From the NCBI GenBank assembly GCA_028821775.1, contig JAPKFB010000022.1:1-64000 (forward strand): a stretch of 64,000 bases of DNA. The letters are read 5' to 3'. Source of the stretch: Roseibacillus sp. (GTDB lineage Bacteria; Verrucomicrobiota; Verrucomicrobiia; Verrucomicrobiales; Akkermansiaceae). Under the pieces are notes generated by a model. The model did no database searches and was not told the DNA's origin. It saw only the letters and a list, made by a program, of their open reading frames with translations. Below, one piece after another: positions 9,586 through 19,021 of this stretch (positions are counted from its first letter, which is position 1; each line of letters starts with the position of its first letter). Made by a program: the position numbers and the translations under genes.

Positions 9586-10200
9586 GTGCACATCACGAGT
9601 TATGCGGGCGGACTTCTAGAAACCAACGGGTATCTTATTGAGAGCGAACAGGGAGCCGTCGCGATTGACGCACCCACGGGAATGTGGGCTTGGTGTCAGG
9701 AGAAAAAGGTGAAACCGACTGGTCTGTTGCTGACCCATCAGCACTTTGATCATGTCGACGACGCGGCAAAAATGCAGGCCGCGGGAATCCCGATCCATGC
9801 CGCCTCTCCTTTTCAGAGGGAGCTCCTCATTGAGGAGATGGTGCTCGAGTGGGGGCTCCCGCTCTCGGTGCAACCCTTCGAAGTCGATCATGTCTTCAGC
9901 ACCAAAGAGAGCCCCCTTAAGCTCTCCGGCATCGAGTTTGAACTCCGTGCGGTGCCAGGGCACTCCCCCGATTCTTTTGTGTTCCACGTGGCACTTTTTC
10001 AAAAAGTTTTTGCTGGAGACACCCTCTTCGCTGGGGGAGGCATGGGCCGATGCGACCTCCCTCTTGGAGACGGCAAACTCCTCCTGCGTTCGATTCGCGA
10101 GCAACTTCTGACCCTTCCGGACGAGACCGACGTCTTTCCAGGCCACGGTCCACCTACTACAATCGGGCGGGAAATTGTAAACAACCCGTATTTGCGCTGA
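9586..10200 (+). CDS. MBL-fold metallo-hydrolase (glyoxalase II-like), GTG start
   Basis: LLTHQHFDHVDDAAKMQAAGIPI (HxHxDH variant), VPGHSPDSFVFHV, VFAGDTLFAGGGMGRCDLP, VFPGHGPPTTIGREIVNNPYL. Confidence 0.9.
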   Translation: MHITSYAGGLLETNGYLIESEQGAVAIDAPTGMWAWCQEKKVKPTGLLLTHQHFDHVDDAAKMQAAGIPIHAASPFQRELLIEEMVLEWGLPLSVQPFEVDHVFSTKESPLKLSGIEFELRAVPGHSPDSFVFHVALFQKVFAGDTLFAGGGMGRCDLPLGDGKLLLRSIREQLLTLPDETDVFPGHGPPTTIGREIVNNPYLR

Positions 10201-10302: not shown

Positions 10303-13044
10303 ATGCCCAAAGACGATTCTCCGACCGCGAAGCAGCAGCGTGCTCCGCTCCCCGAAAGCCTGAAGGGTCAGCTGAACACCTTCCGCGGCCAGCTATGGCG
10401 TGTGAAAGTGGCGGAGGCCATTCTAGCGGGCTGCTTTGGACTCCTCTTTTCTTATCTCCTCGTCTTTGGCTTGGATCGCCTCTGGGCCACGCCTCCCCTC
10501 GTGCGCCTCACCATCCTGATCGGGGGCACATCTTTCTTCGTCTTCTTCGCTCCCTATTGGATTCATCGTTGGGTCTTCGGCCACCGCCGCGAGGATCAAC
10601 TCGCCCGCCTGATCGCCCGCAAGTTTCCCCGCCTCGGTGATCGCCTGCTCGGAGTGGTGGAGCTGCAGAACCAAGAGGAAAGTAAGGAATCACTTTCCCC
10701 GGCACTCCGAAACGCCGCCATGCGTTCGGTGGCCTCCCAAGCGAAGGGTCGAAAATTTGAGAAAGCCCTCCCGAACGCCCGCCACCGAAGCTGGTCGTTG
10801 GTCGTCCTCGCGACCTTTGCCATCGCAGGCGCAGCTCTCGTCCTTGTTCCCAAGGTAGGCATGAATGCACTGAAGCGTTGGCTCCTCCCGCTCTCGGACA
10901 CCCCGCGCTACACCTTCACCAAGATCGACCCCTTCGCCGCAGAGATCATCGTGCCGCGCGGAGAACCGTTTGAGATCGAACTTACCTTGAGCTCGGATTC
11001 CGATAAGAGGCCCCCTCATGGAACCGCGCGTTTTGGCATCCAGGATCCGGTCAAGAGCCCACTCCGGGCCAATCGCAGTTACCTCTTCTCCTTCCCGGGA
11101 CAAGCCGAAGATGGAACGGTCTCGATCCAGATCGGAGACGCCCGCCAAGCAGTCCGGGTGATCCCGACGACCAGACCGACCATCGGGTCTGTAAGCGCCA
11201 ACGTTACTTATCCTGAATATCTGGAACTCAAAAATAAACGGTTGGACCTGCGCGCTGGCAGCATGTCGGTGGTGGTGGGAAGTCAGATTTCCTTGGAGGC
11301 CAATACGATTGAGAACCGAGCTCTTGATCTCGGCACCCTGACGGTGCGCATTCTCCCCAAGCTGAGTGCACGGGATGTCTTTGATGACTTGGAAGCCGAT
11401 CCCACCTCTCCCGAGGAAGAGAGCGTGGAAGAGAGCCTCCCCACGGAACCGGAGACCTTTGCCCTTCGCATTGTCGGCACCGCGATGTCTTCCCCTCCAA
11501 TCGTGATTGGCGATACTCCGACCGAACTTCAGCTCAATTGGCGCGATTCCTATGGACTGGACGATGACGGCGGTCACCGGGTCCGCGTGGAACCGCTCGA
11601 AGACCAAAACCCCACCGCCTACCTCCAAGGGGTGGAGCGTCAGCTCGTCATGCTGGCCACCGACACCGTGAGTTTCGAGATCCTCACCGAGGATGACTTT
11701 GGGGTGAGGGAAATTGGCTACGAATGGGCCGGTCAGTTCACCAAGCCTACGGACGAGACTCCTTCCCGGGGGGATCGCGTTCTCAAGAAGGGAGCCCCCG
11801 ACCTACGCCGGGTCTCGGAAAGAGTGGAGTTCTCCCCCTTCGCGCTGGAGATTCAGCCACAGAAACTCGTCGTGCGTGCCTTTGTGAAAGATTACTTCCC
11901 GGGACGGGGACGCATCTACTCCGAGCCCATCACGGTCTTTATTCTGACCAAGGACGAGCAGGCCCAACTTCTCAAGCAGCAGTTCGATCGCATCATCGGC
12001 GAGCTGGAAGACGCCGCCCGCCGCGAGCAAAACAATTTCGACGAGAACCGCCGTCTCGAGCAAGAGGCTCCAGAGGAACTGCAGGGCGATTCCAGCCAGG
12101 AACGCCTCGAGCAACAGGAGGCCAAGGAAGCCGAGAACGTCGAAAAAATGGAGGAGCTTTCCGAGCGTATGGAGCAGCTTCTTTCCGACGCCCTGCGCAA
12201 CGGAGAGGTCGACTCGGAGACGATGCAGAAGATGGCGGAGGCGATGCAGAACATGCAGGAGCTGAGCCAGCAGGATATGCCCCAGGTCGAGAAGGAACTT
12301 CGGGAATCCCAGGACGACCGCTCTACGCCCGAACAGGCCAAGAAGGATCTCCAGGAAGCCATTGAAGAGCAGGCCAAAGTGCTCGAGAAGATGCGCAAGA
12401 CGATTGAGAGCGCCAACGAAGCCAACGAGAATTTTGAAGCAAGCACCTTCATCAATCGCCTGCGCCGTGCGGCCTCTGAGGAGAACGGAATCGCATCCAC
12501 CCTCGTCAAGGCCATCGAAGCAGATCGAGGAGTAAGCACCATTGCCGGACTCACCATCGAGGAACTCGACCCCGCCGATCAACGCATCGTGGGAGAACTC
12601 TCCATGCAGCAGCGCCGGACCGCCTCCGACGTGCGATGGATCCAAGAAGACTTGGGCCATTTTTACGCCCGCACCCAGAAGGAGGAGCACAAGGAACTGA
12701 TGGAGGCCATGCAAACATCCCAAATCGATAGCGGACTTGAAGAAACCCGTGAGAAAATCGCCGTAAATCGCACCTTTGAAGCCATTGGTCGCGCCAAAAA
12801 GTGGGCCGCCAAGCTGACCGAATGGGCGGATATCCTCGATCCCCCCAAGGATCCCAGCGCTGGGGGGGGCGAGGGAGAGGGAGGCAACAACCAAGGACTC
12901 GACGACAACGATTTTGAGTTTATGTTAAAGATCATGAAGATGATTCAGACCGAGCAGGATATCCGGGCGCGCACGAGAGCCTTGGAACAACTGCGACGAA
13001 CTCTCCATCTTCAGGACGCTCCCAAGGACGACAACCTCAGATAA
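10303..13044 (+). CDS. large membrane-anchored coiled-coil protein, DUF4175-like
   Basis: 913 aa; two N-terminal TM helices (AILAGCFGLLFSYLLVFGL; LTILIGGTSFFVFFAPYWI), beta-rich middle, long E/Q/M-rich coiled coil. Confidence 0.65.
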   Translation: MPKDDSPTAKQQRAPLPESLKGQLNTFRGQLWRVKVAEAILAGCFGLLFSYLLVFGLDRLWATPPLVRLTILIGGTSFFVFFAPYWIHRWVFGHRREDQLARLIARKFPRLGDRLLGVVELQNQEESKESLSPALRNAAMRSVASQAKGRKFEKALPNARHRSWSLVVLATFAIAGAALVLVPKVGMNALKRWLLPLSDTPRYTFTKIDPFAAEIIVPRGEPFEIELTLSSDSDKRPPHGTARFGIQDPVKSPLRANRSYLFSFPGQAEDGTVSIQIGDARQAVRVIPTTRPTIGSVSANVTYPEYLELKNKRLDLRAGSMSVVVGSQISLEANTIENRALDLGTLTVRILPKLSARDVFDDLEADPTSPEEESVEESLPTEPETFALRIVGTAMSSPPIVIGDTPTELQLNWRDSYGLDDDGGHRVRVEPLEDQNPTAYLQGVERQLVMLATDTVSFEILTEDDFGVREIGYEWAGQFTKPTDETPSRGDRVLKKGAPDLRRVSERVEFSPFALEIQPQKLVVRAFVKDYFPGRGRIYSEPITVFILTKDEQAQLLKQQFDRIIGELEDAARREQNNFDENRRLEQEAPEELQGDSSQERLEQQEAKEAENVEKMEELSERMEQLLSDALRNGEVDSETMQKMAEAMQNMQELSQQDMPQVEKELRESQDDRSTPEQAKKDLQEAIEEQAKVLEKMRKTIESANEANENFEASTFINRLRRAASEENGIASTLVKAIEADRGVSTIAGLTIEELDPADQRIVGELSMQQRRTASDVRWIQEDLGHFYARTQKEEHKELMEAMQTSQIDSGLEETREKIAVNRTFEAIGRAKKWAAKLTEWADILDPPKDPSAGGGEGEGGNNQGLDDNDFEFMLKIMKMIQTEQDIRARTRALEQLRRTLHLQDAPKDDNLR

Positions 13045-13088
13045 GGCGGGAAGCGACCCCTCTCCAGAAATCACCAACCGATCTAACC

Positions 13089-13511
13089 ATGAAGACATCC
13101 CGCAGACTAATGATGGCGTCAGTTGCCCTTGTTCTGTTGACCCCCAGCTGGGCGCAGAACGAGACCGCTCCTCCGAAGACAGAGGGGCCGGAAATCGACC
13201 TCCCAAAAATCGAGTATCCGAAGCCCGTCACCGAGGAGCAGAAAAAGGCGGCGGTGAACCACACCAAGGGATCGCAAAGCCTGGCCGGGGAACAGGACGA
13301 ACTTTCCGCTGACGTTCAGGAACTCATCGAGGAACAGACGAGCGAGAAAGTAATCAGCCTGCTCGAGTCCGTGGAAGAGATCATGGCTGAGGTGACCGGC
13401 TCCCTTGATGAAACCGATACCGGCGGGGGCACGATCGCAGCCGAAACCGAGATCATTGAAAAAATCTTTGAAGCCGCCGAGCAGCGAGCCCAACAAAACG
13501 GCGGCACATGA
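13089..13511 (+). CDS. hypothetical secreted protein, N-terminal part of a frame split by TGA
   Basis: Signal peptide MKTSRRLMMASVALVLLTPSWAQ; in frame with 13524-13781. Confidence 0.65.
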   Translation: MKTSRRLMMASVALVLLTPSWAQNETAPPKTEGPEIDLPKIEYPKPVTEEQKKAAVNHTKGSQSLAGEQDELSADVQELIEEQTSEKVISLLESVEEIMAEVTGSLDETDTGGGTIAAETEIIEKIFEAAEQRAQQNGGT

Positions 13512-13523
13512 CCAAACACCGGA

Positions 13524-13781
13524 ATGAGCATGGGTGCCATGCTCGATATGATGCAGCGGATGATGGGGCAACAGCCAGGCCAGGGACAAAAGCCGGGGAA
13601 CGCCGGCAATCAGGGAGGGGAAGGCAAAGGCGGCCCCTCTGACGCGCCCAACAAGGACCTCGCCAGTGCCGGTGAGGGCAATAAGGAAACGCGCCGCTTC
13701 GAGAAAAGCTCAGGCAAGGCAGGCGCAGGTCTCCCCCCCGAATTTCAGAAAGCCCTCGATGCCTACAACAGGAAGCGGTAG
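13524..13781 (+). CDS. hypothetical Gly/Gln-rich protein, probable C-terminal continuation of 13089-13511
   Basis: Same reading frame, separated only by TGA 13509-13511 and four codons; MSMGAMLDMMQRMMGQQPGQ...LPPEFQKALDAYNRKR. Confidence 0.55.
   Translation: MSMGAMLDMMQRMMGQQPGQGQKPGNAGNQGGEGKGGPSDAPNKDLASAGEGNKETRRFEKSSGKAGAGLPPEFQKALDAYNRKR
13526..13544 (+). promoter_or_regulatory. perfect 8-bp hairpin (GAGCATGG-GTG-CCATGCTC) downstream of the in-frame TGA
   Basis: Direct reading of an inverted repeat starting 14 nt after TGA 13509-13511. Confidence 0.5.
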
Positions 13782-13787
13782 GCCATC

Positions 13788-14780
13788 ATGAAGACTGTTC
13801 TCGTTGCCGCCGCGGTGATCACACTGCTGGCGCCCGCAGAGGCTTGGGGGCAATCCTTGCCACGGCGTCAGGACGACCCGATTCCGCCTCAAGTGGACCC
13901 GATGTACGTCAAGGGCCTCCGCTTTCTTGCCCAGACCCAAAGCAAGGAAGGCAATTGGCCCGATCGCAATGGAACTGAGCCCGCAGTGGTGGGTCTCTGT
14001 GTCATGGCCTTCCTCGCTCACGGCGAAGATCCGAATCACGGACCTTACGCGAAGAACATTCGCCTTGGAATCGAGTTCATCATGGACAGCCAATCCGAGT
14101 CGAACGGCTATATTGGTTCCAGCATGTACAATCATGGTTTCGCCACCCTGGCTCTCGCCGAGGCATACGGAGTGTTGCGCGACAAACGGATCGCGGAGGC
14201 GCTCAAAAATGCCGTCGATCTGATTCTTTCGGCCCAGGAGCGCAATGGCCGGGGAGCTTGGCGCTATACTCCACAAAGTCCCGATGCCGACACCACTGTG
14301 ACTGGAGCACAGATGGTGGCCCTCTACGCCGCCCGCAATGCCGGATTGCCAGTGCCCGATGAAGCCTTCAAGAAAGGCCAGGCCTTTCTCAAGCGCTGCC
14401 GGGGTTCGGACGGCGGCTATGGCTACACTTCGGCGGGGAGCGGAAAACCCACCCTCACCGCAATCGGATCGCTCTGTCTCGCCCTCGGGAAGGACCGGGA
14501 CAGCAAGGGCTATCGCGCCAGCGTGGAATACCTCCGCAAGCGCATGACCTATCGTGATCGCTTCTACCCCTACTACTTCGAGTACTACATGTCGCAGGCT
14601 CTCTTTCACGCCGACGAAACGATCTGGAGCGAGTGGAACCTCAAAAATATCCGCTACCTCTCGGCCTTGCAGAGCCGGGAAGGCTCCTGGCCCGGAAACA
14701 AGGGCCCCGCCTTCAGCACGGCCGGCGCCCTCCTTTCCCTCGCCCTGAATTATCGCTTTCTTCCGATCTATGAAAAGTAA
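13788..14780 (+). CDS. secreted prenyltransferase/squalene-oxidase-repeat (alpha/alpha toroid) protein
   Basis: Signal peptide; repeated motifs GLRFLAQTQSKEGNWP, GWRYTP-like GAWRYTPQSPDADTT, RCRGSDGGYGYTSAG, LSALQSREGSWPG. Confidence 0.8.
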   Translation: MKTVLVAAAVITLLAPAEAWGQSLPRRQDDPIPPQVDPMYVKGLRFLAQTQSKEGNWPDRNGTEPAVVGLCVMAFLAHGEDPNHGPYAKNIRLGIEFIMDSQSESNGYIGSSMYNHGFATLALAEAYGVLRDKRIAEALKNAVDLILSAQERNGRGAWRYTPQSPDADTTVTGAQMVALYAARNAGLPVPDEAFKKGQAFLKRCRGSDGGYGYTSAGSGKPTLTAIGSLCLALGKDRDSKGYRASVEYLRKRMTYRDRFYPYYFEYYMSQALFHADETIWSEWNLKNIRYLSALQSREGSWPGNKGPAFSTAGALLSLALNYRFLPIYEK

Positions 14781-16338
14781 GAATAGAGGGCTTTTCACCG
14801 CTACTAGAGCACTAGTATCACTCCTGGCGGGCGTTTTTCTGACCGTCGGCCCATCCTCCGGGGAGACGGAGAGGCCAAACAGCGATCTTCTCCGCTTTCA
14901 AAATGGAGACACTCTCCACGGACAGTTTCTCGGTCTGAAGGACACTGAAATTAGCTGGCGCCACTCCGAAGCCCGTGAAACGATCAAGCTCAAGACCAGT
15001 AAACTGCGCCGGATCGCGTTCAACGGTGGACGTTCCCGCAAAGTTCTTCGAAGCCTCTCTTTTGTTCACCTGGAGGGGGGTGATCGCATTCCGGGGACCA
15101 TCATAAGTCTGGATGCCGAGAACCTCATCATGGAGACCGAGTTCGCTGGCACCGTCACCATCCCGCGCAAATTTGTCAGCCAACTCTCCCCCAATCCACA
15201 TGGAGGCGCGCTTCACTACCTAGGCCCATTCTCAGCCGATGAGTGGACGGTGGCGGAGCCTCCTGCAAAGGAGGAAGACCCACCTCCTCTGCCCCAGGAG
15301 GAGAAGGAGAAGGAGGATCCCGCCGCGGCCCGGGAGGACCCCGAAAATATCGAGGAAGACCTTTGGGTCTTCAGCGCGGGGGCCTACTACAGCAATGGCC
15401 AACTTCCCATCGCGATTGACACCCGGGCCCCAGACAAGGCCCGGATCCGTTTCTCGCTCGCTTGGAGAAATCGTCTCAATGCCGCAATCGCCTTCCACGC
15501 CACCATGAGCCAACCGGAGCTCCCCGACGACAAGAAGAAGGACGACGTGGTGAAGATACCGAAAATCGCTCCCGGCAAGGCGGGAGGAACGGCGGGATTC
15601 GCTTACACCTACGGACACAGCTACGTACTCACGATTTATTCGAACTACGCTCAAATCTACCGCTGCGGATTCGACGAGGAGGGCAAAGCCGACATGGATC
15701 GCCTGTCAAATGCCAGTGCCAACTTGCGCTTGGAGGACGCTGGCCAGGCGGAATTCGAGCTCCGTTGCGATCGCGAAACGGGGATGATCATCCTTTTCGC
15801 CAATGGTCGCTTCGTCAGCCAATGGGAGGACCATCGGGGCTACGTCGCGACCGGTAGCCATCTTGCCTTTGCGGCCCAGGGTGTGAATTCACGCCTCCGG
15901 GTCTCCGATGTGGTGGTGACGTCCTGGAATGGTATGATGGACAGCGCGCAGAGCATGGAGGCCGAAGACCGGGACGTCATCCTGCTCACCAACGGGACCG
16001 ACCGCTTTTCAGGCGAATTGAGCGGCTTGAAGGATGGGATGTTCAGGGTCAAGGGATCCTACGCCGAAATGACGGTGCCCCAGGAAGACGTCCAGGAAAT
16101 TCGCCTCGCTCGCGAGAAGAGGACCCAGGAAAATGACGAAGAGAGCAGCCGGCAAAGGGTGCGCCTCCTTCTGCAGCCATACGGTCGCCTGACCTTGAGA
16201 CCTCTGGAGGCTAACGCGGAGCGCATGAACGCGCATCACCTGGCCATGGGTGAACTCAAAATCCATTTGGGCTATGCCAGCCTCATGGAGTTTTCATTCA
16301 GCAATAGTGTGCTTGATTTATGGGACGACGACTACTGA
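14770..16338 (+). CDS. secreted beta-module protein A (tandem paralog 1 of 3)
   Basis: 522 aa; RFQNGDTLHGQFLGL, HLEGGDRIPGTIISLDAENLIMETEFAGTVTIPRKF; overlaps upstream gene end. Confidence 0.75.
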   Translation: MKSKNRGLFTATRALVSLLAGVFLTVGPSSGETERPNSDLLRFQNGDTLHGQFLGLKDTEISWRHSEARETIKLKTSKLRRIAFNGGRSRKVLRSLSFVHLEGGDRIPGTIISLDAENLIMETEFAGTVTIPRKFVSQLSPNPHGGALHYLGPFSADEWTVAEPPAKEEDPPPLPQEEKEKEDPAAAREDPENIEEDLWVFSAGAYYSNGQLPIAIDTRAPDKARIRFSLAWRNRLNAAIAFHATMSQPELPDDKKKDDVVKIPKIAPGKAGGTAGFAYTYGHSYVLTIYSNYAQIYRCGFDEEGKADMDRLSNASANLRLEDAGQAEFELRCDRETGMIILFANGRFVSQWEDHRGYVATGSHLAFAAQGVNSRLRVSDVVVTSWNGMMDSAQSMEAEDRDVILLTNGTDRFSGELSGLKDGMFRVKGSYAEMTVPQEDVQEIRLAREKRTQENDEESSRQRVRLLLQPYGRLTLRPLEANAERMNAHHLAMGELKIHLGYASLMEFSFSNSVLDLWDDDY

Positions 16339-17663
16339 TGAACGCCAATTTTCGCCTCCTTCTTGCCTGCTCTCTTTCCTGCGCACCCGCCCTCTTCGCG
16401 GCCGATCTTATCAGCCTGAAAGACGGAAGCACTCTGCGCGGGACAGTCCGCTTAATCGACCAACATGGTACTGTCGTGTTAGATTCCACTCTCAGCGCCA
16501 AACCCATCCGGTTGAAAGGAGAAGCCCTGCGATCGATCAACTTCGACATCAAGGCTACCGCCCTCCAGAACCACAGCGAACTTCTCCATCTCACCAACGG
16601 AGACATTCTTCCAGGCACTCTCAAGTCCCTCGATCACGACAAGCTCACCTTTCATACTTGGTACGCGGGCGAGGTCACGCTCGAGCGAAAGTTCGCACAA
16701 GCCATCGACTTCGGTGTGTCGCCCCAGAAAATGGTTTATCAGGGCCCAAAGGGACTGTCTGAATGGAGCGCCAATGACGACTGGGAATTTGAAAATGGGA
16801 AACTGGTGTGTGATACCAGCGGCACGATTGCACTCGAGAGCATCCTACCCAAGCAGTTCATCCTGCGATTCAGGCTCGAGTGGGAGAACAGCCCGAACTT
16901 CCGCATCTATTTCTGCGACGACCACCTGAAGCGCACCGGAATTGCGGATCGCTATTACTTTGAATTCAACTCCGCTGGTTCACAACTCAAACGGCAAACT
17001 TCCGAGGGCGATCGCCAATGGTTCACCCTGGCCCAGTCCCACCAACGCCCCGAGGAGTTCAATGGCCGCGGAGTGGATGTGGAGTTGCGCGTGGATCGAA
17101 TCCGCCGCCAGATTTCCCTCTATCTCAATGGTGAGAAACTGCAGCGCACCCCGGACCCGATCGATAGCTTCCCGACCGGGACTGGGATCATGCTGCAGAG
17201 TCAAGCGGGCGGCGATTTGAAGAACATCATCCCACAGATCGAGATTTATGAATGGGATGCCATTACCGAGCTCCGGCGCAACGAGGGCCACGATGACCTC
17301 AAGACCGATGGACTGGTCGATGTGGAAGGCCAGCACATCAGTGGCACCGCCTTGCGCTTGGAGAAGGCCGATGGGAAGGCGCGGGTGGTCTTCGAAAGCC
17401 CCTTCAACAAGAAGGCCCTTGAAATCCGCACTCATCGAATTTCTTCGCTCTACTTCAAGACCGAGGGAGATCCTCCCAAAGAGCACACTCCCATCCGATT
17501 CAACCTCCGCGGTGGTGGAGAGCTGCAACTCTCCACCCTCGTTCTCGGGGAACGTAATCTTTCAGCCCAACATCCTCTCCTTGGCGAACTCACCCTCAGT
17601 CGGGAAGCTCTCGAACAACTCTTCGTCCGGCCCCCGGAAGAAGAATCCGATCAGATCCAATGA
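16338..17663 (+). CDS. secreted beta-module protein B (tandem paralog 2 of 3)
   Basis: Start at ATG 16338 (TGATGA overlap with A); SLKDGSTLRGTV, LTNGDILPGTLKSLDHDKLTFHTWYAGEVTLERKF. Confidence 0.75.
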   Translation: MNANFRLLLACSLSCAPALFAADLISLKDGSTLRGTVRLIDQHGTVVLDSTLSAKPIRLKGEALRSINFDIKATALQNHSELLHLTNGDILPGTLKSLDHDKLTFHTWYAGEVTLERKFAQAIDFGVSPQKMVYQGPKGLSEWSANDDWEFENGKLVCDTSGTIALESILPKQFILRFRLEWENSPNFRIYFCDDHLKRTGIADRYYFEFNSAGSQLKRQTSEGDRQWFTLAQSHQRPEEFNGRGVDVELRVDRIRRQISLYLNGEKLQRTPDPIDSFPTGTGIMLQSQAGGDLKNIIPQIEIYEWDAITELRRNEGHDDLKTDGLVDVEGQHISGTALRLEKADGKARVVFESPFNKKALEIRTHRISSLYFKTEGDPPKEHTPIRFNLRGGGELQLSTLVLGERNLSAQHPLLGELTLSREALEQLFVRPPEEESDQIQ

Positions 17664-19021
17664 AAAAATTGATCGTCCTCCTTGCCCTCCTTCCCTGCCT
17701 TGCACCAGCTCAGGAAGAGATCGAGCCCGAACTTGCCGGCACCTTGAAATTTGCCAATCGAGACCGCATCAGCGGCTATCCGAAAGGCCTTGATGCCGAA
17801 GGGCACCTCAAGTGGCAGGCCAGCTTCCTCAAGGAGCCCATCTCGATTCGCCCATCTACAATCCTTGAGATGCGCTTGGAGGGCGGGCAGCGGGTTGCCC
17901 CCGATGTTGCGCATCATGCTCTCCTCACCCTCACCAATGGCGACACCCTTCGCGGGCAGCTCGATGCCCTGGATGAAGAGCACGTCACCTTGAAGACCTG
18001 GTATGGCGGCAACCTGAAGATCAAGCGCACGATGGCTTCCAATCTTGAAATCCTGCGTAACGAGCGCGCGGTCTACTCCGGACCGGTCGATTTTGAATCT
18101 TGGAACATCAAGGGCGAACCTGATTCCTGGTCGATGAACACCGGCGTGCTGACATCTTCCAAGGGTGCGGGGATCGCTCGCGAGATCGACTTCCCAGACA
18201 AATGTCGGATTGGTTTCGACGTTTCCTGGCGGAGCGGCCTGCGTTTACGCGTTCTTCTCTTTTCAGACGATGGAGACGACACTCAGCCCGACAATTGCTA
18301 CGACCTCGTCTGCCAACGACGCTTTGTCTATCTTCGCAAACGCTGGATGACGCGCGGGTCCGGGGGCTCCCGGATAGTGGGCCAGGCTAACATCGAAAGC
18401 CTTGCGACCAAGGAGAAGGCGCGCTTTGATTTCTATATCGACCGCACGGTGGGAACGATTGCCCTCTACATCGATGGCGCCCAGGCCCAAGTCTGGACCG
18501 ATCAGGATCCCAAGGTGGGTAAGCTGGGCAATTGGCTCCATTTCATCTCCGAAGACTTTTTCCCAATCCAAGTTTCCCGCATCCGGGTGAGCCCTTGGAA
18601 GGGGGACCTCCCCGAGAATGTGAATACCGCCGCGCTGGAAGAGCAGGAGGACGACGACGGACAACTTATCCGCCTCCAGAATGGCGATCTCGTGATCGGC
18701 GAAGTGGGTCAAATCGCAAATGGAGTTCTCGATATCAAAACGAAGTTCTGCGACATGAAAATTCCTGTTGACCGCATGCGCACGATCGATCTCTCCACCG
18801 GAGAATACGAGGAACCGATCCGCAAGGAAGGCGACGTGCGGGCATGGTTGCAGGCGGGCGGGCGCGTGACCTTCCGTCTCAACACTTTCGATAGGGAGTC
18901 CCTCAGTGGCTACAGTCAGACCTTCGGCGACGCGACCTTCAAGCTGAGCGCATTCTCCCGCATCGAGTTCAATATTTACGATGATGAACTCGAATCGATG
19001 CGGGGCACCAACAACTGGTAA
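17660..19021 (+). CDS. secreted beta-module protein C (tandem paralog 3 of 3)
   Basis: ATGA overlap with B; LTNGDTLRGQLDALDEEHVTLKTWYGGNLKIKR, LQNGDLVIGEVGQI. Confidence 0.75.
   Translation: MKKLIVLLALLPCLAPAQEEIEPELAGTLKFANRDRISGYPKGLDAEGHLKWQASFLKEPISIRPSTILEMRLEGGQRVAPDVAHHALLTLTNGDTLRGQLDALDEEHVTLKTWYGGNLKIKRTMASNLEILRNERAVYSGPVDFESWNIKGEPDSWSMNTGVLTSSKGAGIAREIDFPDKCRIGFDVSWRSGLRLRVLLFSDDGDDTQPDNCYDLVCQRRFVYLRKRWMTRGSGGSRIVGQANIESLATKEKARFDFYIDRTVGTIALYIDGAQAQVWTDQDPKVGKLGNWLHFISEDFFPIQVSRIRVSPWKGDLPENVNTAALEEQEDDDGQLIRLQNGDLVIGEVGQIANGVLDIKTKFCDMKIPVDRMRTIDLSTGEYEEPIRKEGDVRAWLQAGGRVTFRLNTFDRESLSGYSQTFGDATFKLSAFSRIEFNIYDDELESMRGTNNW

What the first reader, a model, noticed from the sequence alone, without database searches (positions are those of the whole stretch)
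10303..19021. Compact seven-ORF envelope operon centred on three tandem paralogs: candidate undescribed system
Seen: about 8.7 kb of same-strand ORFs with tiny gaps or overlaps (14770 starts inside 13788-14780; TGATGA at 16338; ATGA at 17660). Products are a membrane-anchored coiled-coil protein (DUF4175-like), one or two secreted low-complexity proteins, a secreted squalene-cyclase-like toroid, and three secreted paralogs. No cyclase-pathway, transport or regulatory genes are interleaved. Inference: co-translated subunits of one cell-envelope assembly. The MoxR/DUF58/VWA (Bat-type) genes I would expect near some DUF4175-like genes are not seen here.
Basis: partly seen in the sequence, partly recalled or inferred. 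Interest (0 to 1): 0.78.

Follow-up and report, generated by a model that had tools for sequence, protein, structure and literature searches.

The report
Selenocysteine protein in envelope operon
The 'two small secreted proteins' of this conserved bacterial envelope operon are one protein interrupted by a UGA codon that these bacteria almost certainly read as selenocysteine, so the operon carries an undescribed kind of selenium-containing protein whose relatives without selenium have no cysteine in its place.

Summary
The operon is real and its order is conserved, but it has six genes, not seven. ORFs 13089-13511 and 13524-13781 are one reading frame interrupted by an in-frame TGA (13509-13511). 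At least 44 Akkermansiaceae genomes (four genera) carry such TGAs, some two: all 55 in-frame stops examined are TGA, never TAA/TAG. A bSECIS-like hairpin (GAGCAUGG-GUG-CCAUGCUC) follows, exactly 22 nt from UGA to loop in 38/43 genes. Its Ser/Gly codons are frozen (AGC 42/42, GGT 43/43), while every other conserved degenerate codon tabulated in the gene varies. The genome encodes SelB, tRNA-Sec(UCA) and a Sec-containing SelD; selA was not tested. 41/44 UGA genomes have SelB, and no UGA was seen in six SelB-less genera. In one genus selB sits directly downstream of the operon. Relatives elsewhere in the class fuse this protein to the membrane-anchored partner. Non-Sec homologs have no Cys at the site, unlike catalogued selenoproteins. 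No NCBIfam/Pfam family matches. Best reading: a periplasmic helical selenoprotein with Sec on a flexible linker beside a Met-rich helix, part of an envelope complex with a DUF4175-like anchor, a toroid and three lectin-like proteins. Selenocysteine insertion: about 0.95, inferred. The chemistry (redox or soft-metal binding) is open.

The parts
9586..10200 (+). MBL-fold hydrolase gene, upstream neighbour in genera g1, g2, g7, g8 and some g24, not found beside the operon in g9/g10/g25; possibly first gene of the transcript
   Evidence: Lactamase_B E 1.5e-13; neighbour
10303..13044 (+). DUF4175L: membrane-anchored 913-aa protein (three hydrophobic segments by eye) with periplasmic region and coiled coil; carries the selenoprotein domain as a C-terminal fusion in other families
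13089..13781 (+). Selenoprotein gene (230 residues, reads through TGA): signal peptide, helical bundle 49-136, Sec141 in flexible linker, Met-rich helix 145-158, disordered linker, C-terminal helix 217-229
13509..13511 (+). In-frame TGA, read as selenocysteine (residue 141)
   Evidence: conserved as TGA in all g1 genomes holding the gene and in g9, g10, g25
13526..13544 (+). bSECIS hairpin GAGCAUGG-GUG-CCAUGCUC, loop 22 nt after UGA
13788..14780 (+). Secreted alpha/alpha toroid, squalene-cyclase-like by family search
   Evidence: PF13243 E 1.4e-7; far below the cyclase cut-offs
14770..16338 (+). parA, first of three secreted paralogs
16338..17663 (+). parB (ORF open from 16320): paired small beta-barrels, central ConA/lectin-like beta-sandwich, C-terminal small barrels
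   Evidence: LSM E 4e-4 and 3keto-disac_hyd E 0.01, both below cut-off; AlphaFold pLDDT 87.6; Foldseek lectin-like jelly rolls
17660..19021 (+). parC, third paralog; last gene here; selB follows directly in genus g25

Best explanation
The locus encodes a periplasmic/envelope complex whose second gene is an undescribed selenoprotein. UGA at 13509 is decoded as selenocysteine by SelB and tRNA-Sec, guided by the hairpin 22 nt downstream. This joins the signal-peptide-bearing N-terminal helical bundle to the Met-rich helix and C-terminal segment in one exported protein, the form that non-Sec relatives make as an uninterrupted ORF. Sec lies on a short flexible linker and is the only Sec/Cys in the mature protein here, though some relatives have U-x2-U, U-x3-U, U-x5-U or U-x2-C. 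Inferred function: a mobile selenol/diselenol site tethered to the DUF4175L membrane anchor (the domain is fused to it in other families), exchanging Se-S/Se-Se bonds with partners or substrates in the envelope, or binding a soft metal together with the Met-rich helix; the toroid and three lectin-like proteins are the scaffold or ligand-binding parts. Likelihoods: UGA read as Sec about 0.95; one functional envelope assembly about 0.85; redox exchange about 0.5 against metal/metalloid binding about 0.3. Shown by sequence: TGA conservation, hairpin, codon freezing, operon order, presence of Sec genes. Inferred: decoding itself, export, complex formation, chemistry.
For: 55 of 55 internal in-frame stops are TGA, while terminal stops of the same genes are TGA in 12/43. 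38/43 genes have a UGA exactly 22 nt before a GU(G/U) loop; the stem, loop, G-U, spacing and MFE fit the published bSECIS model (PMC13188914). Ser AGC 42/42 and Gly GGT 43/43 in the hairpin, whereas every other tabulated conserved degenerate codon (at least 90% same residue) uses 3-6 synonyms; GGT is 16% of Gly codons elsewhere in these genes. The outermost stem pair is G-C in 15 and A-U in 6 distinct sequences. The 17-mer occurs once per genome in 45 of 260 family genomes plus twice in G249; the reversed control pattern occurs in none. Natural loss: G244 has no UGA and its GGT became GGA. SelB above cut-off, tRNA-Sec with UCA anticodon and Sec-containing SelD in the own genome. 41/44 UGA genomes have SelB; the other three are MAGs of 80-88% completeness. 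selB is the next gene after parC in g25, in UGA+ and UGA- species. Fusion of the domain to DUF4175L elsewhere. In family f3 the DUF4175L linker holds CxxCxxC in four relatives and UGA in Sec-encoding G034.
Against: No experiment shows selenium. selA was not searched. Residues next to the UGA are variable, and non-Sec homologs have no Cys at the site, so conventional Cys/Sec pair support is missing. Three genomes have only a UGA 40 nt from the loop (outside 16-37 nt), and G221/G222 keep the hairpin without a UGA. Stem covariation is limited to one pair because the hairpin hardly varies. Three of 44 UGA genomes lack a detected SelB. No partner cysteine tracks the presence of Sec. The G034 UGA is a single genome.
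Confidence: 0.9

Rival explanations
1. Gene fission: UGA is a true stop and the second ORF is translated separately by re-initiation at ATG 13524 or 13530; the hairpin is a coupling element.
For: Two ORFs in g1 with an ATG 12 nt after the stop.
Against: The second ORF would have no signal peptide although its homologs are part of a secreted protein. No Shine-Dalgarno-like sequence between UGA and ATG in most genomes (inspection). The first ATG lies next to the stem and the following ATGs lie inside it. 12 of 43 genes have two in-frame UGAs. Only TGA is used (55/55). Presence tracks SelB.
Confidence: 0.04
2. Programmed stop-codon read-through that inserts an ordinary amino acid (for example Trp), stimulated by the hairpin.
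For: UGA followed by C in 44/55 cases, a leaky context by general knowledge; stem-loop downstream.
Against: Fixed 22-nt spacing and invariant G-U loop match SelB recognition; phylogenetic match with SelB; selB adjacency in g25; the same genome has an in-frame UGA in SelD.
Confidence: 0.04
3. Sequencing error, pseudogene or ordinary nonsense mutation.
For: Many genomes are MAGs.
Against: TGA at this site in 44 genomes of four genera; frame and protein conserved on both sides.
Confidence: 0.005
4. Given Sec, the site binds soft metals or metalloids (Cu(I), Hg, Ag) together with the Met-rich helix rather than cycling redox states.
For: Met-rich helix MGAMLDMMQRMMG directly after Sec, conserved in Sec-less homologs too; single Sec with no Cys in the mature protein in g1; catalogued metal-binding selenoproteins with UxxU.
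Against: A Met-rich helix may simply be an amphipathic binding surface. No metal-transport gene in the operon. Foldseek similarity to CsoR/CstR is not significant (E above 1).
Confidence: 0.3

Closest known systems
Bacterial selenoproteins (119 families/subfamilies catalogued in PMC13188914)
   Same: In-frame UGA, bSECIS within the published constraints, SelB/tRNA-Sec/SelD in the genome; a minority of known families also have 2-3 Sec
   Different: No thioredoxin-like or other known domain; Sec in a flexible variable linker; no Cys at the site in non-Sec homologs, whereas PMC12013277 states that all known selenoproteins appear to have Cys-containing homologs and that its filter may discard families lacking them
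DUF4175 proteins (PF13779)
   Same: Membrane-anchored coiled-coil protein; distant relation to a paralog in the same genome that matches PF13779 weakly
   Different: PF13779 does not match this protein
MoxR-DUF58-VWA (Bat-type) operons
   Same: In same-order relatives DUF58 (L069) or BatA (L072) genes lie upstream of the homologous gene set
   Different: None of these genes is present at this locus
Squalene-hopene cyclase / prenyltransferase toroid family
   Same: alpha/alpha toroid by HMM
   Different: 330 aa, secreted, scores about 20-29 bits against cyclase cut-offs of 322-851
LSM and ConA/LamG-like carbohydrate-binding domains
   Same: parB model: small barrels flanking a lectin-like sandwich
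   Different: No curated family reaches its cut-off; Foldseek TM-scores normalised by the query are low (about 0.25-0.31)

Membership tests
Bacterial selenoprotein | In-frame UGA conserved with coding sequence on both sides | tested here: met
   44 genomes, four genera; 55/55 internal stops TGA
Bacterial selenoprotein | bSECIS: loop 3-9 nt with G in first two positions followed by G/U, stem 4-16 bp, 16-37 nt from UGA, MFE at most -7.5 | tested here: met
   loop GUG/GUU, stem 7-9 bp, 22 nt in 38/43, MFE -8.9 to -20.5 for the 22-nt cases; three genes have only a UGA at 40 nt, outside the range
Bacterial selenoprotein | Sec machinery in the genome (SelB, tRNA-Sec, SelD; also SelA) | tested here: met
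   SelB 300 bits, tRNA-Sec 68.6 bits with UCA anticodon, SelD with in-frame TGA; SelA not searched
Bacterial selenoprotein | Homologs with Cys at the Sec position | tested here: not met
   none in the Sec-less homologs inspected; customary in catalogues rather than definitional; a CxxCxxC/U replacement exists in the other linker, in DUF4175L of family f3
Bacterial selenoprotein | Selenium in the purified protein | not testable with these tools
   needs 75Se labelling or mass spectrometry
A curated selenoprotein family (NCBIfam) | Match to a model | tested here: not met
   0 families for the window protein; three weak single-member hits among 15 members, none a selenoprotein model
DUF4175 (PF13779) | Pfam HMM match | tested here: not met
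Bat-type operon | MoxR, DUF58, VWA genes in the operon | tested here: not met
   absent from the neighbourhood here; present upstream in relatives and at C35
Squalene/hopene cyclase | Full-length match above curated cut-off | tested here: not met

The most novel reading that the evidence does not exclude
Selenocysteine used not in a classical redox-enzyme active site but as one or two mobile selenols on an intrinsically flexible linker of a cell-envelope assembly, with no cysteine precursor at that position and, in one genus, with selB built into the operon, so that this structural complex is a main client of the Sec machinery. In two-UGA mRNAs an extra hairpin containing the second UGA may bring the same SECIS within reach of the first.
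Probability: 0.35. Interest if true: 0.85.

Novelty: new variant of a known kind. Interest (0 to 1): 0.74.

Why it matters
It adds a selenoprotein family that current finders are built to miss: deep-Sep and other Cys/Sec-pair methods filter on Cys-containing homologs, and the authors of PMC12013277 state that all known selenoproteins appear to have them. Here Sec appears to be kept or lost without a Cys intermediate (Ser, Gly or Gln instead), which bears on how Sec sites arise. It puts selenium into a widespread, uncharacterised Verrucomicrobial envelope operon and gives that operon a testable chemical handle. A gene caller that stops at UGA splits the gene in two, as happened here.

Tried and rejected
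Partner cysteines that track Sec: none does. Foldseek of the selenoprotein model: no significant match; helical CsoR/CstR hits at E above 1 were not used. Foldseek of parB: top hits are botulinum/tetanus binding domains and their relatives at TM-score about 0.28 and rmsd about 20 A, i.e. generic jelly-roll similarity; no toxin relation is claimed. Covariation across the whole stem: too few changes, only the outermost pair varies on both sides. Treating the G034 UGA as a second case: kept as a single-genome observation, since four relatives have CxxCxxC. The extra hairpin between the two UGAs: a stem forms there in all 11 distinct sequences, but z-scores of the nine tested run only from -0.4 to -3.3, so suggestive. 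Literature: no paper in the library holds Roseibacillus with selenocysteine; the 2026 review does not mention Verrucomicrobia.
Full report
WHAT IS THERE. The window lies on contig C24 of a 5.24-Mb assembly; related contigs are named Roseibacillus / Akkermansiaceae. In genera g2, g7, g8, in same-order family f6 and others the corresponding gene is a single ORF of about 200-250 codons. So the operon is: [MBL-fold hydrolase] - DUF4175L - selenoprotein - toroid - parA - parB - parC.

CONSERVATION OF THE OPERON. The order DUF4175L > small protein > toroid > parA > parB > parC, with small gaps or overlaps, recurs in Akkermansiaceae genera g1, g7, g8, g9, g10, g23, g24, g25 and g27, and in family f6. 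Akkermansia-like g3 and other families of the class have shorter versions. In g11 the first two genes and the rest lie apart in the loci examined (L061/L062, L227-L229). In distant families of the class the small protein is the C-terminal part of a 1030-1146 aa DUF4175L protein. In families f2-f5 the three paralogs are replaced by one protein of 1000-1260 aa, and in L069 and L072 DUF58 or BatA genes lie upstream. The own genome has a separate MoxR-DUF58-BatA-VWA-DUF4175-like operon at C35.

THE UGA IS CONSERVED AS UGA. A profile of the small protein (A1) matched 179 of 260 family genomes. Reading the loci gives 43 genes with internal stops: all 13 g1 genomes holding the gene, 19 g9, 4 g10 and 7 g25, plus G249, 44 genomes in all. 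In the 43 genes, 12 have two internal stops; all 55 internal stops are TGA, while the terminal stops of the same genes are TAA 19, TGA 12, TAG 12. Two-UGA forms are mostly U-x5-U, with U-x2-U in L175 and U-x3-U in L178; L060 and L163 have U-P-S-C.

THE HAIRPIN. Downstream is GAGCAUGG-GUG-CCAUGCUC (loop GUU in g10 and g25). The distance from UGA to loop is 22 nt in 38 of 43 genes, 28 in two and 40 in three. [quoted passage not shown] the 38 fit. The constraint is on RNA: in a codon alignment of the 43 genes every other residue tabulated as conserved and degenerate uses 3-6 synonymous codons, but the hairpin serine is AGC in 42/42 and the glycine GGT in 43/43; GGT makes up only 16% of Gly codons elsewhere in these genes. 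The outermost pair changes from G-C to A-U in 6 of 30 distinct sequences. Over 260 genomes the 17-mer occurs in 46, once each except G249 (two contigs, same gene), and the reversed control pattern in none. Exceptions: G212 is cut by a contig end, and G221/G222 keep the hairpin but have Ser in place of Sec. In G244, a g9 species without UGA, the same amino acids are kept but GGT became GGA, as expected if the GU loop matters only with a UGA.

SEC MACHINERY. The own genome has SelB above the curated cut-off, tRNA-Sec with UCA anticodon and SelD with an in-frame TGA (SCAGUASKLG). Of the 44 UGA genomes 41 have SelB over cut-off; G239, G245 and G210, MAGs of 80-88% completeness, do not. No UGA form was seen in genera without SelB (g3, g6, g7, g11, g23, g24). 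In g25 selB is the next gene downstream of parC in the six loci that reach it (L205, L208, L212, L213, L214, L243; 28-294 bp in the five with gaps listed). On a toroid tree the UGA trait changes about six times, at least four on well-supported branches; with a near-identical hairpin throughout, one old gain and repeated loss is more likely than repeated gain (inference).

WHAT THE PROTEIN LOOKS LIKE. No Pfam or NCBIfam family matches it. The AlphaFold model (mean pLDDT 69, main helices over 90) has a signal helix, a helical bundle 49-136, a short loop with Sec141, a Met-rich helix 145-158, a disordered stretch and a C-terminal helix. The window protein has no cysteine. Sec-less homologs carry Ser, Gly, Gln or deletions at the site, not Cys. 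PMC12013277 states that all known selenoproteins appear to have Cys-containing homologs and that its method may discard those without, which could explain why this one is not catalogued. A related hint comes from family f3: four relatives have CxxCxxC in the DUF4175L linker, and Sec-encoding G034 has a UGA there with selD nearby; two other same-order genomes have CxxC (L069, L070). The complex may thus commonly carry chalcogen residues on a linker. G034 is one genome and is not part of the claim.

PARTNERS. parB folds confidently (pLDDT 87.6) as small barrels around a lectin-like sandwich. The toroid is squalene-cyclase-like by HMM but far below cyclase cut-offs. Neither says more than 'binding or scaffold'.

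MECHANISM AND LIMITS. Shown: conserved TGA, RNA-level constraint, bSECIS fit, Sec genes present, conserved operon. Inferred: Sec insertion (about 0.95), export, one complex (about 0.85), chemistry (redox 0.5, soft-metal 0.3). In g1 a single Sec without Cys cannot form an internal bond, so a redox role there needs a partner thiol, a second copy or a small molecule; no partner Cys tracks Sec. In two-UGA mRNAs the first UGA is usually 40 nt from the loop; a second hairpin spanning the later UGA position forms in all 11 distinct sequences, which could shorten the path to about 18 nt. This is suggestive only.

VERDICT. I file the gene as a new selenoprotein family (a new variant of a known kind), with decoding inferred from sequence and not yet shown by experiment.

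Noticed in passing
L237 (G034:C76), DUF4175L linker; selD at G034:C76:6184-7113: Single-genome in-frame UGA (GFTUKSSKPGDSLPPE) in the fused DUF4175L protein of a Sec-encoding family-f3 genome, where four relatives (60-65% identical) have CxxCxxC (e.g. QCSNCSSC); selD lies downstream of the operon there.
   Followed up: partly
L155, L158, L164-L173, L177 (g9/g10), between the first UGA and the SECIS hairpin: An extra hairpin spans the second UGA position in mRNAs whose first UGA is 40 nt from the SECIS loop; arms differ in sequence but a stem forms in all 11 distinct sequences.
   Followed up: partly
L205, L208, L212, L213, L214, L243: selB is the gene directly downstream of parC in genus g25, in UGA+ and UGA- species alike.
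   Followed up: yes
L045 (G000:C35): Second, MoxR-DUF58-BatA-VWA-DUF4175-like operon in the same genome, holding a distant paralog of the 913-aa protein that matches PF13779 weakly.
   Followed up: partly
window 13524-13568: Met-rich segment MSMGAMLDMMQRMMG directly after Sec; the methionines are conserved also in Sec-less homologs, compatible with soft-metal binding or a hydrophobic binding surface.
   Followed up: no
window 9586-10200: MBL-fold hydrolase gene stays upstream of the operon in several genera (g1, g2, g7, g8, some g24) and may belong to it.
   Followed up: partly
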